Shown here piece after piece: positions 16,884 through 24,411 of a stretch of 53,374 nt of DNA (within the stretch, counting starts at the first letter, position 1; each line of letters opens with the position of its first letter). The notes under the pieces were generated by a model. The model worked only from the letters and a program-made list of their open reading frames with translations, searched no databases and had not been told where the DNA came from. Origin of the DNA: Clostridia bacterium (GTDB lineage: Bacteria > Bacillota > Clostridia > Oscillospirales > CAG-272); assembly GCA_017450945.1 (NCBI GenBank), contig JAFSSP010000005.1:1-53374 (forward strand). The letters run 5' to 3'. Both the position numbers and the translations under genes were made by a program.

Positions 16884-17180
16884 ATGAACATTACTCAATC
16901 TGCCATAAACGGCAAAACCGTGCTGGCTCCCGAAGGACGGCTTGATACGGTATCAGCTCCCGAACTGGAAAAGGTTGTAAAAGACGTGATTCCAACGACC
17001 GACGAACTGGTGCTTGATCTTGCAAAGCTCGATTATATTTCCTCCGCAGGACTTCGCATTCTGCTTTCTGCGCAGAAAGCCATGATGACAAAAGGCGGCA
17101 TGACGGTTTGCAACGTCAATGAGACCATTCTTGAAATCTTTGAAGTGACCGGCTTTTCGGATATCCTGACGATCGTGTGA
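16884..17180 (+). CDS. STAS-domain anti-sigma factor antagonist (RsbV/SpoIIAA-like)
   Basis: 98 residues, a single STAS domain. In partner switching the unphosphorylated form binds an RsbW-type kinase and frees its target; a PP2C phosphatase reactivates it. The regulatory serine lies in LDYISSAGLRILLS (Ser53 or Ser54). The phosphate-loop region PEGRLDTVSAPELE and C-terminal FEVTGFSDILTIV are typical. GGAGG precedes the ATG. The stop overlaps the start region of the phosphatase gene, so enzyme and substrate are made together. The STAS domain of the fusion protein at 21.9 kb carries the same YISSAGLR motif, so the two STAS domains may share the phosphatase. Confidence 0.93.
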   Translation: MNITQSAINGKTVLAPEGRLDTVSAPELEKVVKDVIPTTDELVLDLAKLDYISSAGLRILLSAQKAMMTKGGMTVCNVNETILEIFEVTGFSDILTIV

Positions 17181-18664
17181 TGAAAATGGAAAAAGAAAAA
17201 AAGTCTTTTTGGAAGAAATTACGCGATAAGCTGACGCCAGACCTTATGTTCCATGAGACCGAGGTGCAGGCGAACCGCCTCGGCTTTCTGATGCTGTTAT
17301 GCAGCGGAATCATCCTGGTTCTCATCCTCATTCTGGTCGAAACCGGAATTTTCCCTTTGCAGGGAGATTTCATGAGGGCTGCAATCATTCGCTCCCTCAT
17401 TGAGATCACGGCTCTGCTCGTTTTCTGCAAAATCGTCAAGTACGACGCCTGGTGGCTTAAACCGCTTCTCATCGTCGGCATGGTGATCGTCTATGCGCTC
17501 CTTGACAGTATGCTCACCCACAAGGCCGCCATTCTGATGGTTCTTCCTGTGGTCTTCAGCAGCCGCTATTTTTCGCGCAGACTGACGGTGTTTACATCGC
17601 TGTTTACAACGGTTATCTTTATCTTTTCCGCCTATTGGGGCGCAACGCACGGTTTTATCAACCTCAACATCGTCACGATGGAGGAAGGTACCAGAATGGT
17701 CGCAACCGGAGGATTCCTCGGCGACGCGGTTCAGAACGTGCTCAACCTGGATCCGGCTGCGGGCAACAAAATGCTCATCGTAAACACCTTGCTTTACGAT
17801 TATCTTCCCAGATGGCTCATGTTTTCCATCGTGTCTGTGATCAGTTGCAACATTGCCCGCAAAGGGCGCGACATGGTGGTGACCCAGCACGAAAAAGACG
17901 TCAAGGGCGCGCGAATCGAGTCAGAACTCAATTTGGCTACCCGTATTCAGGCCGATATGCTTCCGAATATCTATCCGGCGTTTCCGGATCGAAAAGAGTT
18001 TGACATCTATGCGACGATGGATCCTGCCAAAGAGGTTGGCGGCGATTTCTACGACTTTTTCCTCATCGACAAGGATCATCTTTGCATGGTGATGGCCGAC
18101 GTCTCCGGAAAAGGCGTTCCTGCGGCGCTCTTTATGATGGCATCAAAGATCATTCTCGCCAACAACGCCATGATGGGGAAGAGCCCGGCGCAGATTTTGA
18201 CCGACACCAATGAGGCGATTTGTGCGAACAACCGCGAGGAGATGTTTGTCACGGTCTGGCTCGGCATTCTGGAAATTTCCACCGGCAAATTGACCGCGGC
18301 CAACGCAGGGCATGAGTATCCGGTCGTCAAAGATGCCGACGGTTCCTATGAGATCTATAAGGACAAGCACGGCTTTGTGATCGGCGGTATGCCCGGTGCT
18401 CGCTACAAAGAGTATGAGCTTATACTGAAACCGGGATCAAGACTGTTCCTTTATACCGACGGCGTTCCGGAAGCAACCGATGCCGATGGGAATATGTTTG
18501 GTGCAGACCGGATGGTCGAAGCGCTTAAAGCGATCGATCCTTCTGCCGATCCGAGTGTGACCTTGAAGGCGATTCGCGCGGCGGTAGACGGCTTTGTCAA
18601 AGACGCCGAGCAGTTTGATGATATTACCATGCTCAATCTTGAATACAAGGGCGATCTTTCATAA
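17180..18664 (+). CDS. Membrane-bound PP2C phosphatase (RsbU/SpoIIE-type)
   Basis: 494 residues. An N-terminal cytoplasmic stub is followed by about six membrane helices (about 35-230), a short coiled connector (about 232-260, HEKDVKGARIESELNLATRI) and a C-terminal PP2C_SIG domain (about 260-494). Metal and catalytic motifs: PAKEVGGDFYDFF, MVMADVSGKGVPAALFM, LTAANAGHEYPVV, LFLYTDGVPEATDADG and EQFDDITMLNLEY. Such phosphatases dephosphorylate the serine of STAS antagonists. The ATG at 17180 overlaps the STAS stop; GTG 17177 and ATG 17186 are alternatives. The membrane part lacks a recognisable sensor domain. It ends at a strong terminator facing the P-type ATPase gene. Confidence 0.93.
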   Translation: MKMEKEKKSFWKKLRDKLTPDLMFHETEVQANRLGFLMLLCSGIILVLILILVETGIFPLQGDFMRAAIIRSLIEITALLVFCKIVKYDAWWLKPLLIVGMVIVYALLDSMLTHKAAILMVLPVVFSSRYFSRRLTVFTSLFTTVIFIFSAYWGATHGFINLNIVTMEEGTRMVATGGFLGDAVQNVLNLDPAAGNKMLIVNTLLYDYLPRWLMFSIVSVISCNIARKGRDMVVTQHEKDVKGARIESELNLATRIQADMLPNIYPAFPDRKEFDIYATMDPAKEVGGDFYDFFLIDKDHLCMVMADVSGKGVPAALFMMASKIILANNAMMGKSPAQILTDTNEAICANNREEMFVTVWLGILEISTGKLTAANAGHEYPVVKDADGSYEIYKDKHGFVIGGMPGARYKEYELILKPGSRLFLYTDGVPEATDADGNMFGADRMVEALKAIDPSADPSVTLKAIRAAVDGFVKDAEQFDDITMLNLEYKGDLS

Positions 18665-21931: not shown

Positions 21932-23527
21932 ATGGCAAACGAAAACATCCTCAAACTTGAACTGAACGGCAGAATTGATTCGGGCAACTCCGAGAGCGTT
22001 GCAGAAAATCTCTTTGCAAAACTCAACGAAGCGCAGCCCGAGGCGCTTGTGTTGGATGCCGAAAATCTCGAGTATATCTCCAGCGCAGGACTTCGTGTGA
22101 TCCTTCGCATCAACCGCTCCTATCCCGATTTGAAGATCATAAACGTCTCTTCCGACGTTTATGAGATCCTTGAGATGACCGGATTTACAGAAATGATGAC
22201 GGTGGAAAAGGCCTATCGCCGCGTTTCGGTCGAGGGGTGCGAAGTGATCGGGGAAGGCTTTAACGGCAAGGTCTATCGGATCGATAAAGACAACGTCGTC
22301 AAAACCTACAAGAACGCCGATGCGCTTGCTGAGATCCAACACGAAAGAGAAGTGGCGCGTCTTGCGCTCATTCTGGGCGTGCCGACCGCAATTTCCTATG
22401 ACGTGGTCAAGGTCGGTGATAGTTACGGCTCGGTCTTTGAACTCCTGAACGCAAAGTCTTTTGCAAAGATTCTTGCAAAAGAGCCGGAACGCATGGATTT
22501 TTGCGTGGAAGAGTATGTAAAAATGCTCAAAAAGATTCACGCGATCAAAGTGCCGGCAGGGAAGCTGCCTTCCATCAAAGAAACAACTGCAAAAAAGATA
22601 GAGCGCATGAAGGATCTACTCCCGGACGGGCTCGGTGAAAAGTTTTTCGAGATGGTCAAGGCGATTCCCGAGAGCGAGAATATGGTGCACGGCGATTTCC
22701 ACACCAAAAACATCGTTCTTGCGGGTGATGAAGTGCTCCTGATCGATATGGATACACTCTCGGTCGGCGATCCGATCTTTGAATTCTTGCACATGTACTG
22801 CGCCTATGTGGGCTATTCCGAATACAACCCGGAGATCGTCCTCCAGTTCCAAGGGTATTCCGCCGAGATTTCCCGCACCTTCTGGCGCAAAACGCTGGAA
22901 GCTTATTTCGGAACCGACGACAAAAAGGTGATTGACGCCATTGAAGACAAGATCCGCTGTATTTCTTACGGGTATCTGATCGATTGGAAGACCCGCCATC
23001 CCGGAGATGATCAAGCGGAGAACGAAGCGACCATCGCGCTTTGGAAGGAACGTTTGATCGAAGTTCTCGGCCGCTTGGATTCACTTGACTTAAACCTGAT
23101 TGCGATCGAAACTTCCGATCCGAACGTCCTTGAGATCGACGCCAGTGTCGAAAAACTGCAGGACGTATTGGATTTTCTCAATGCAAAGCTGGAAGCGGCA
23201 GACTGCTCGGCCAAGGTTCGCATGCAGGTCAACATCGCGGTCGAAGAGATCTTCGTCAACATTGCAAATTACGCTTATGCACCGGAAGTCGGAAAGGCAG
23301 CGATCAAGGTTGATCTCTCGGGCGAGTCTCCAACGCTTACGGTGACGCTGATCGACAGTGGAATTCCGTATGATCCCACCGGAAAAACCGATCCGGATAT
23401 CACCCTTTCTGCCGAAGAGAGGCAAATCGGCGGGCTGGGGATCTTTATGACCAAGAAAATCATGGACGACGTGTCCTACGAACGCAAAGACGGAAAAAAT
23501 ATCCTGACCATGAAAAAAACGCTTTGA
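21932..23527 (+). CDS. STAS / APH-like kinase / RsbW-like ATPase fusion protein
   Basis: 531 residues in three parts. (1) STAS domain, 1-95, with LEYISSAGLR (Ser50-Ser51) as the likely phosphosite. (2) An aminoglycoside-phosphotransferase/choline-kinase-like domain, about 103-375: nucleotide loop GEGFNGKVYRID (108-118), Brenner motif HGDFHTKN (His253, Asp255, Asn260) and LIDMD (Asp272); this resembles the TIGR02172-type kinase group. (3) A GHKL ATPase of the RsbW/SpoIIAB type, about 395-531: N-box VEEIFVNIANYAYAP (Glu438, Asn443), G1 LIDSGIPYDP, G2 GGLGIFMTKKIMDDVSY. All key residues look intact. Antagonist and its kinase in one chain is unusual. ATG at 21932 follows TTTGGAGCG. A PHP gene follows after 17 nt. 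Confidence 0.92.
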   Translation: MANENILKLELNGRIDSGNSESVAENLFAKLNEAQPEALVLDAENLEYISSAGLRVILRINRSYPDLKIINVSSDVYEILEMTGFTEMMTVEKAYRRVSVEGCEVIGEGFNGKVYRIDKDNVVKTYKNADALAEIQHEREVARLALILGVPTAISYDVVKVGDSYGSVFELLNAKSFAKILAKEPERMDFCVEEYVKMLKKIHAIKVPAGKLPSIKETTAKKIERMKDLLPDGLGEKFFEMVKAIPESENMVHGDFHTKNIVLAGDEVLLIDMDTLSVGDPIFEFLHMYCAYVGYSEYNPEIVLQFQGYSAEISRTFWRKTLEAYFGTDDKKVIDAIEDKIRCISYGYLIDWKTRHPGDDQAENEATIALWKERLIEVLGRLDSLDLNLIAIETSDPNVLEIDASVEKLQDVLDFLNAKLEAADCSAKVRMQVNIAVEEIFVNIANYAYAPEVGKAAIKVDLSGESPTLTVTLIDSGIPYDPTGKTDPDITLSAEERQIGGLGIFMTKKIMDDVSYERKDGKNILTMKKTL

Positions 23528-23544: not shown

Positions 23545-24411
23545 ATGGAAAGTCGGTTTCAAAAGATCGATCTGCACATGCATACCACGGTATCCGACGG
23601 TACCGACACACCAAAAGAGCTCCTTGACAATGTAAAAAAAGCCGGTATCGAATTCTTTTCTGTGACCGATCACGACGCGGTCAAAGCCGGAAAAATACTG
23701 CTTGGCATTCTTGGAAAAGAGGATCCCGCTTTCGTTCCTGGGATTGAGTTCTCCTGTCAGGACGAGCTTGGGAAATACCATATTCTCGGCTACGGATTTG
23801 ATCCGGATCATCCCGCAATCCAGAGTGCGCTCCGGCACGGTCACGATCTGAGAATGTCAAAGCTCGACAAGCGGCTTGCGTTTTTGGAAGAGAAATTCGG
23901 CTTTGTCTTTTCCAAAGAAGACAAAAACAGCATTTTTGCAGTGGATAATCCCGGCAAACCGCATATCGCAAACATGATGGTTCGCTACGGATATGCCAAA
24001 ACCAAAGAAGAAGCGATTCTCGATTATATCAACAAAGCTCCCGGAAAAAGCGAACACATCAGGCCCCCAGAGGCAATTTCCGGCATTCTTGGCGCCGGTG
24101 GAATCCCGATTTTAGCCCACCCTTTTTACGGAAGCGGGGACGAGCTCATTCTCGGCGACGAGATGGAAGCGCGGCTTTTGCGCCTGATAGAGATGGGCCT
24201 TCGCGGCGTGGAAGCCTACTACTCCGGCTTTACAAAAAAGATGCGGGTGCAGATGTGCGAGCTGGCCACAAGATATGATCTTTATATCACCGCCGGGAGC
24301 GACTATCATGGGACGAATAAGCTGGTGACGCTCGGTGATACCGGTCTTTCGGAAGAGACCGAGTATCCAAGTGGGCTCTGTCGGTTTATCGACGATATTC
24401 TGCAAAAATAA
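23545..24411 (+). CDS. PHP-domain metal-dependent phosphoesterase
   Basis: 288 residues, a stand-alone PHP domain of the YciV/TrpH (RNase AM-like) group, which acts on nucleotide or oligonucleotide phosphoesters. Metal ligands: DLHMHTTVSDGTDTP (H-x-H and Asp), SVTDHDAV, VPGIEFSC (Glu), LAHPF and AGSDYHG (Asp, His). An insertion between about 85 and 160 is typical. The ATG at 23545 follows GCGGAAAGGAGC. It lies 17 nt behind the STAS-kinase-ATPase fusion gene and so shares its transcript, but a functional tie is only inferred. Confidence 0.92.
   Translation: MESRFQKIDLHMHTTVSDGTDTPKELLDNVKKAGIEFFSVTDHDAVKAGKILLGILGKEDPAFVPGIEFSCQDELGKYHILGYGFDPDHPAIQSALRHGHDLRMSKLDKRLAFLEEKFGFVFSKEDKNSIFAVDNPGKPHIANMMVRYGYAKTKEEAILDYINKAPGKSEHIRPPEAISGILGAGGIPILAHPFYGSGDELILGDEMEARLLRLIEMGLRGVEAYYSGFTKKMRVQMCELATRYDLYITAGSDYHGTNKLVTLGDTGLSEETEYPSGLCRFIDDILQK

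What the first reader, a model, noticed from the sequence alone, without database searches (positions are those of the whole stretch)
21932..23527. One protein fuses a STAS antagonist, an APH-like kinase and an RsbW-like ATPase
In partner switching the STAS antagonist and the RsbW kinase are normally separate proteins that bind reversibly. Here they are the two ends of one 531-residue chain, with an intact APH/choline-kinase-like domain between (His253-Gly-Asp255, Asn260, Asp272) and an intact GHKL site. The molecule could switch in cis, phosphorylate a small molecule or protein, and pass the state to an unknown partner. The stand-alone STAS and a PP2C phosphatase are encoded 4 kb away. Family level known: STAS, APH (TIGR02172-type), HATPase_c. 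Inferred: the combination acts as one switch.
Basis: partly seen in the sequence, partly recalled or inferred. Interest (0 to 1): 0.72.

Follow-up and report, generated by a model that had tools for sequence, protein, structure and literature searches.

The report
Phospho-switch fused to small-molecule kinase
A gut bacterium has joined an on/off protein switch normally used to control gene transcription to an enzyme that probably phosphorylates a small molecule, beside a gene for an enzyme that probably removes phosphates, so the switch may control a metabolite or signal rather than a gene.

Summary
Window 21932-23527 (+) encodes one intact 531-residue protein with STAS, APH-type kinase and RsbW-type ATPase domains. 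Of 80 related loci, 79 hold the same layout at near full length, with all three active sites kept, so it is not an assembly join. Fusion of the switch ends is not the core of the system: many relatives have STAS-APH alone, with the ATPase as a separate gene or fused to the PP2C phosphatase. The tree is best read as one gain of the ATPase and two losses. Free STAS, PP2C, STAS-APH and ATPase form one module, rarely with a sigma factor nearby. Best-supported mechanism: partner switching with an enzyme as output. The ATPase phosphorylates, and PP2C dephosphorylates, a STAS serine, and the attached APH kinase reads that state (inferred). An unexpected lead: beside the core lies either a PHP phosphoesterase or a RelA/SpoT-like small alarmone hydrolase, never both (0 of 113 loci, within 3.5 kb of DNA held), with at least four changes between them on a tree; the hydrolase is fused to the same APH family in two genomes. 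This hints at a ribose-phosphorylated substrate or product. Nothing was tested biochemically; no structure model could be made.

The parts
16884..17180 (+). Free 98-aa STAS protein, YISSAGLR motif; likely substrate of the ATPase domain and the PP2C (inferred)
   Evidence: Pfam STAS 52.4 bits, TIGR00377 71.4 bits against cut-off 53.45; a relative lies near the fused gene in 73 of 96 fused loci
17177..18664 (+). SpoIIE-type PP2C phosphatase with hydrophobic N-terminal stretches (by eye, probably membrane-bound); overlaps the STAS gene by 4 bases
   Evidence: Pfam SpoIIE 165 bits; a relative near the fused gene in 52 of 96 fused loci; one of two SpoIIE-domain genes found in the genome
21866..21894 (+). 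Promoter-like site TTGAAA-N17-TATAAT
   Evidence: 11 of 12 consensus matches; a consensus match only
21932..23527 (+). Three-domain protein STAS-APH-HATPase, 531 aa
21938..22210 (+). STAS domain, residues 3-93; predicted phospho-acceptor Ser51 at 22082-22084
   Evidence: choice of Ser51 by comparison with SpoIIAA/RsbV is recalled
22241..23086 (+). APH-fold kinase domain, residues about 104-385 (Pfam 104-307); HGD 253-255, Asn260, Asp272
23141..23518 (+). RsbW/SpoIIAB-type HATPase_c_2 domain, residues 404-529; Glu439/Asn443, Asp475/Gly477, Gly500-Gly503
23545..24411 (+). PHP-family phosphoesterase, 288 aa if ATG 23545 is the start; 17 bases after the fused gene
   Evidence: Pfam PHP 27.4 against 26.4 bits over residues 16-53; nucleoside bisphosphate phosphatase model NF041577 116 bits, below its cut-off of 400; PDB 3e0f, 2yb1, 9etk, 7ug9; a relative near the fused gene in 64 of 96 fused loci, 64 of 64 co-oriented

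Best explanation
It is the effector of a partner-switching module whose output is an enzyme instead of a sigma factor. Shown by sequence: the module consists of a free STAS, a PP2C phosphatase, a STAS-APH protein and one RsbW-type ATPase, and the ATPase is placed differently in different lineages (fused to STAS-APH here). Inferred: the ATPase domain phosphorylates Ser51 of STAS domains, both its own (within a dimer) and that of the free STAS, which compete for it. The PP2C senses a signal, probably through its N-terminal hydrophobic part, and removes the phosphate. The phosphorylation or docking state of the STAS is passed through the short, constant, highly conserved STAS-APH junction to the APH domain, which phosphorylates a small molecule only in one state. 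The hydrolase next door (PHP here, a small alarmone hydrolase in other lineages) acts in the same pathway, probably removing a phosphate.
For: (1) Active-site residues of all three domains identical in 80 of 80 aligned rows or 85-86 of 86 distinct fused proteins. (2) Gene order recurs: in 96 fused loci (not deduplicated, many cut by contig ends) a free STAS in 73 (82 of 83 ORFs co-oriented), PHP in 64 (64 of 64), PP2C in 52 (53 of 53). (3) Domain shuffling: STAS-APH with a separate neighbouring ATPase (L147, L149) or with a PP2C-ATPase fusion (L148, L150, L152, L153, L159, L160, L177, L178, L179, L183). In 146 genomes of the window's family, by my reading of the table, 18 hold STAS-APH without a fused ATPase (one, G470, in fragments) and 18 of these 18 have a related ATPase elsewhere, beside it or not; 8 have such an ATPase without STAS-APH (end of table cut). 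(4) Tree: the fused form needs three changes, best read as one gain and two losses. (5) Own genome, 84% complete: HATPase_c_2 over cut-off only here and beside a SigF-like gene on C29; seven Sigma70_r2 genes, by best match RpoD, SigK, SigG, SigE, SigF, ECF and SigH-like, none best matched by SigB. (6) A sigma gene in 2 of 122 core loci. (7) STAS-APH junction 23 residues in 79 of 80 rows, the best conserved of seven segments (0.90); APH-ATPase junction 17-27 residues, 0.54.
Against: No activity was measured and no structure model was obtained. The constant junction may only mean that it belongs to the APH fold, since an APH protein without STAS keeps much of it (L099). In the window the PP2C and free STAS are separated from the fused gene by an opposite-strand gene and may be expressed apart. 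24 of 86 distinct fused loci and 12 of 27 two-domain loci have neither PHP nor HD in the DNA held. The genome is incomplete, and the sigma search used a profile of five own group-1/sporulation sigma factors, so ECF types could be missed. The APH part had no PDB match at E up to 0.001.
Confidence: 0.62

Rival explanations
1. It is an ordinary anti-sigma factor with extra domains: the ATPase domain holds a sigma factor (for example the SigF- or SigG-like one) and the STAS domains release it; APH is a scaffold or side activity.
For: HATPase_c_2, free STAS and SpoIIE-type phosphatase are the classic parts; the genome has SigF- and SigG-like genes.
Against: The SigF-like gene sits beside its own STAS and ATPase genes (L107). 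A sigma gene was found in only 2 of 122 core loci. APH catalytic residues are invariant in 86 of 86 fused proteins. STAS-APH persists without the fused ATPase.
Confidence: 0.15
2. The APH domain is a protein kinase, or acts on the STAS/PP2C proteins themselves, so the chain is a two-kinase relay without a small-molecule substrate.
For: The APH fold is related to protein kinases (recalled); weak matches to Bud32-type kinase models (about 20 bits, below cut-off).
Against: Best family match is to APH-like families; association with a PHP or HD nucleotide-type hydrolase and direct HD-APH fusion in L098 and L101 point to a small molecule.
Confidence: 0.13
3. It is a drug-modifying (aminoglycoside-type) kinase under stress control, with a MATE exporter in some of the operons.
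For: Pfam APH; a MATE transporter gene near the fused gene in 21 of 96 fused loci (MatE confirmed by Pfam in the three tested).
Against: No resistance model among the nine NCBIfam families reported for the protein; the same gene group is kept in many gut lineages; linked hydrolases are of nucleotide type.
Confidence: 0.05

Closest known systems
RsbU-RsbV-RsbW / SpoIIE-SpoIIAA-SpoIIAB partner switching (Bacillus)
   Same: PP2C phosphatase, STAS with conserved serine, RsbW-type ATPase; SpoIIAA, RsbV and RsbW chains are among the seven PDB matches
   Different: ATPase and a second STAS are in one chain with an APH kinase; a sigma gene is rarely nearby (2 of 122 loci)
SipA / sigma-SsdA of Actinoplanes missouriensis (PMC10733313; abstract and one section read)
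   Same: One protein carries both an anti-sigma and a STAS domain; its partner carries STAS fused to its output domain
   Different: The output there is a sigma factor; here an APH kinase, in the same chain
SiaABCD of Pseudomonas aeruginosa (PMC8457831; abstract read)
   Same: A switch protein directly activates an enzyme (diguanylate cyclase)
   Different: Separate proteins and a different enzyme; here the STAS is covalently joined to the kinase
TIGR02172 APH-like family (named after Fibrobacter)
   Same: APH part aligns with positions 7-226 of 226
   Different: Below the family's cut-off (115.6 against 228.2 bits)
Small alarmone hydrolases, MESH1 (PMC9765508, abstract read)
   Same: The HD partner gene of related operons matches these, HD..ED identical in 17 of 17 aligned rows, near-duplicates included
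   Different: Here it is the neighbour of, or fused to, an APH kinase; it is not in the window

Membership tests
RsbW/SpoIIAB-type serine kinase | HATPase_c_2 domain with intact N-box and G-boxes | tested here: met
   86.6 bits against cut-off 27.4; Glu439 and Asn443 in 86 of 86, G-box residues in 85 of 86 (one gap)
RsbW/SpoIIAB-type serine kinase | Curated RsbW equivalog score | tested here: not met
   NF003144 33.2 against 145 bits; TIGR01924 23.9 against 155.05
RsbW/SpoIIAB-type serine kinase | Phosphorylates a STAS serine and binds a sigma factor | not testable with these tools
   needs biochemistry
STAS antagonist | STAS domain with conserved phospho-acceptor serine | tested here: met
   53.8 against 22.6 bits; TIGR00377 56.9 against 53.45; Ser50 and Ser51 in 86 of 86 fused and 27 of 27 two-domain proteins
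APH phosphotransferase superfamily | Pfam APH above cut-off with catalytic HxD....N, later Asp and N-lobe Lys | tested here: met
   54.5 against 23.2 bits; Lys124, His253, Asp255, Asn260, Asp272 in 86 of 86 fused proteins; in two-domain proteins Lys and His 27 of 27, the others 26 of 27
TIGR02172 paralog family | Score above curated cut-off | tested here: not met
   115.6 against 228.2 bits; no match over cut-off in 341 class genomes
Sigma-factor partner switch (SigB/SigF type) | Cognate sigma factor in or near the operon | tested here: not met
   sigma gene in 2 of 122 core loci; no gene best matched by SigB in the own, 84% complete genome
Partner switch with enzyme output (SiaABCD-like) | State of the switch protein changes enzyme activity | not testable with these tools
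   inferred from domain fusion and intact sites only

The most novel reading that the evidence does not exclude
The STAS-APH protein makes a nucleotide-type signal or cofactor phosphorylated on the ribose 2' or 3' position, only when partner switching allows it, and the neighbouring small alarmone hydrolase or PHP phosphatase removes it. This would be a new second-messenger module that couples a PP2C/STAS/RsbW switch directly to nucleotide chemistry.
Probability: 0.2. Interest if true: 0.88.

Novelty: new variant of a known kind. Interest (0 to 1): 0.66.

Why it matters
Partner switching is best known as a way to free sigma factors. Here bacteria titled as Clostridia and relatives (57 of 80 titles name rumen or other ruminant stomach samples, the prefix RUG counted as rumen from recall) couple the same parts to a kinase whose substrate is unknown. 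Because the parts are shuffled between lineages, the wiring can be read from genomes and tested with a few purified proteins. In fused loci an alarmone-hydrolase-like gene and a PHP gene replace each other directly downstream, which gives a first place to look for the substrate: phosphorylated nucleotides or cofactors.

Tried and rejected
Assembly join: rejected, 79 of 80 related loci carry the frame at near full length and the other is cut by its contig end. Cis switching as the essential feature: rejected as the core idea. Sigma-factor target: looked for in the own genome and in 122 core loci, not supported. Whether the unknown 200-aa protein that pairs with STAS is a degenerate ATPase: profile comparison gave 12% probability, left open. 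Structure prediction: interrupted, then switched off; no docking statement is made and no fold search was run. TIGR02172 literature: 0 papers in the held library. In eight paper searches none of the listed titles or abstract openings describes a STAS-APH protein; longer result lists were cut (one search listed 20 of 650, 8 of 34) and many subscription papers are not held.

Rows dropped or chosen: one search left out 1 of 80 relatives (L040). One search used all 27 two-domain and every second fused core (70 of 113), including the broken row L097 as its open frame reads. One search used every third distinct fused ATPase with all others. One search left out 7 of 113 cores (six with long branches or close to those, plus the broken one). 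Results against a simple reading: the strict test that the fused proteins form one clade is rejected (p-AU 5e-13), probably because two two-domain proteins are nested among them; the gain-then-loss reading rests on a midpoint root; fused proteins occur scattered in several families and in one genome outside the class (G315), so horizontal transfer is possible. In one of the two HD-APH fusions (L101) the HDxxED motif reads HDVVEG, and the HD gene of L148 is shortened to 106 aa.

Full report
What is there. Window 21932-23527 on the + strand is one open frame of 531 codons from ATG, with GGAG before the start and a promoter-like site upstream. Pfam places STAS at 3-93, APH at 104-307 and HATPase_c_2 at 404-529, each above its curated cut-off. 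NCBIfam gives TIGR00377 (anti-sigma factor antagonist) above and TIGR02172 below its cut-off.

It is not an artefact. A scan of GTDB genomes found 345 stretches encoding a relative; the best 80 were kept, and 79 of them match the query nearly end to end. In an alignment of the query with 79 relatives, SSAGLR 50-55, Lys124, His253-Gly-Asp255, Asn260, Asp272, Asp475, Gly477, Gly500, Gly501 and Gly503 are identical in 80 of 80 rows. In 86 distinct fused proteins Glu439 and Asn443 are in 86 and the G-box residues in 85, one row having a gap.

How common. The full three-domain protein was seen in 2 of 398 phylum genomes (own included), in at least 7 of 341 class genomes (own included) and in 11 of 146 family genomes (own included).

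The module. In 96 fused loci (not deduplicated; many contigs end nearby) the neighbours are a free STAS in 73, PHP in 64, a SpoIIE-type PP2C in 52, a MATE transporter in 21 (14 of these ORFs also hit my HATPase profile; Pfam found both domains in the three tested), an unknown 200-aa protein in 20, a 409-aa protein in 15, a VanX-like protein (named by eye) in 13 and an HD protein in 6. In the window an opposite-strand P-type ATPase gene lies between PP2C and the fused gene, as in L022 and L044; L009 and L068 also have it directly upstream of the fused gene.

How the ATPase moves. Of 146 family genomes 92 match the query somewhere; by my reading of the table 11 hold the three-domain protein and 18 hold STAS-APH without the ATPase, one in fragments (end of table cut). 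Fetched loci show the ATPase as a separate neighbour (L147, L149) or behind the PP2C (L148, L150, L152, L153, L159, L160, L177, L178, L179, L183). L151 and L162 are STAS-APH proteins nested in the fused clade and followed directly by PHP, so probably losses of the ATPase; both genomes keep a related ATPase elsewhere. A tree of the STAS-APH core gives the fused form three changes (70 of 113 distinct cores used; root at the midpoint). The ATPase tree puts the fused ATPases on one side of a branch (support 82), near the PP2C-fused and separate ones, but has few columns.

Few sigma factors. The own genome (84% complete) has two HATPase_c_2 proteins over cut-off, this one and one on C29 between a STAS gene and a SigF-like gene; a third match below cut-off is a histidine kinase. 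It has two SpoIIE-domain genes, the window's PP2C and one on C8 in a frame of 805 residues, which I take to be SpoIIE itself. Its seven Sigma70_r2 genes are by best match RpoD, SigK, SigG, SigE, SigF, ECF and SigH-like; the SigE and SigF names are below the curated cut-offs. A profile of five own sigma factors found a sigma gene in 2 of 122 core loci.

Coupling. The stretch from the end of STAS to the APH glycine loop is 23 residues in 79 of 80 rows and has the highest mean conservation of seven segments (0.90); the APH-ATPase link is 17-27 residues, conservation 0.54. This fits a rigid STAS-APH unit with a tethered ATPase. It is an inference; no model was obtained.

Lead to the substrate. Within 3.5 kb of the core, in the DNA held, an HD gene lies in 12 of 27 distinct two-domain loci and 4 of 86 distinct fused loci, a PHP gene in 3 and 58, neither in 12 and 24, both in none of 113 (18 of the 113 have less than 1 kb on one side). 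The HD gene lies within 100 bases of the core, directly upstream in two-domain loci (L147: downstream, opposite strand) and directly downstream in fused loci, where PHP otherwise stands. A further fused locus (L134) also carries it. Within fused loci the chance that none of 4 HD loci has PHP, given 58 of 86, is about 0.01 (hand calculation that ignores relatedness). On a tree of 106 cores HD and PHP need at least four changes. The HD protein matches Lmo0812, MESH1, small alarmone hydrolases and RelA in the PDB. In L098 and L101 an HD_4 domain is fused to the N-terminus of the same APH family, seen in 2 of 321 class genomes (from the best matches); L101 has one changed residue in the HDxxED motif. 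The window's PHP protein matches PDB 3e0f (putative metal-dependent phosphoesterase), 2yb1 (named amidohydrolase), 9etk (PHP family) and 7ug9 (exoribonuclease) and, well below cut-off, the 3',5'-nucleoside bisphosphate phosphatase and RNase RNM models. [quoted passage not shown] Hence the guess that the APH substrate or product is a ribose-phosphorylated nucleotide; it rests on gene company only.

Known parts. STAS and anti-sigma domain in one chain (SipA) and STAS fused to an output (sigma-SsdA) are published (PMC10733313, abstract and one section). A STAS-glycosyltransferase of Anabaena is mentioned in a review (PMC8256260, passages). A switch that acts on an enzyme is known from SiaC-SiaD (PMC8457831, abstract). 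None of the titles or abstract openings listed in eight searches describes a STAS-APH protein.

Verdict. Real and conserved, with intact sites: a new variant of partner switching, probably with an enzyme output. The three-domain observation stands; the cis-switch idea is replaced by a module in which the ATPase can be in the same chain or in another.

Noticed in passing
L110:4962-6824 (-), own genome contig C8: A STAS domain of the free-STAS type (residues 1-96, motif TSAGLR) is fused to an acyl-CoA ligase: a second STAS-enzyme fusion in the same genome.
   Followed up: partly
L024:7904-9664 (+), L160:6444-8198 (+), L180:1706-3490 (-): MATE transporter with a C-terminal HATPase_c_2 domain; in the 15 such domains aligned Gly477 is Cys in 15 of 15 and Gly501 is His or Asn.
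   Followed up: partly
L005:3297-3902 (+); L109:5735-6514 (+), own genome contig C18: Unknown 200-aa protein without Pfam match that pairs with the free STAS; 27 related ORFs in the loci held, not deduplicated.
   Followed up: partly
L098:6583-8061 (-), L101:5977-7473 (-): HD_4 (small alarmone hydrolase-like) domain fused to the N-terminus of the same APH family.
   Followed up: yes
L097:6140-6925 (-): Broken STAS-APH gene in a genome outside the class: the frame stops inside the APH part.
   Followed up: no
window:18722-21751 (-): P-type cation ATPase gene directly upstream of, and opposite to, the fused gene; also in L009, L022, L044, L068.
   Followed up: no
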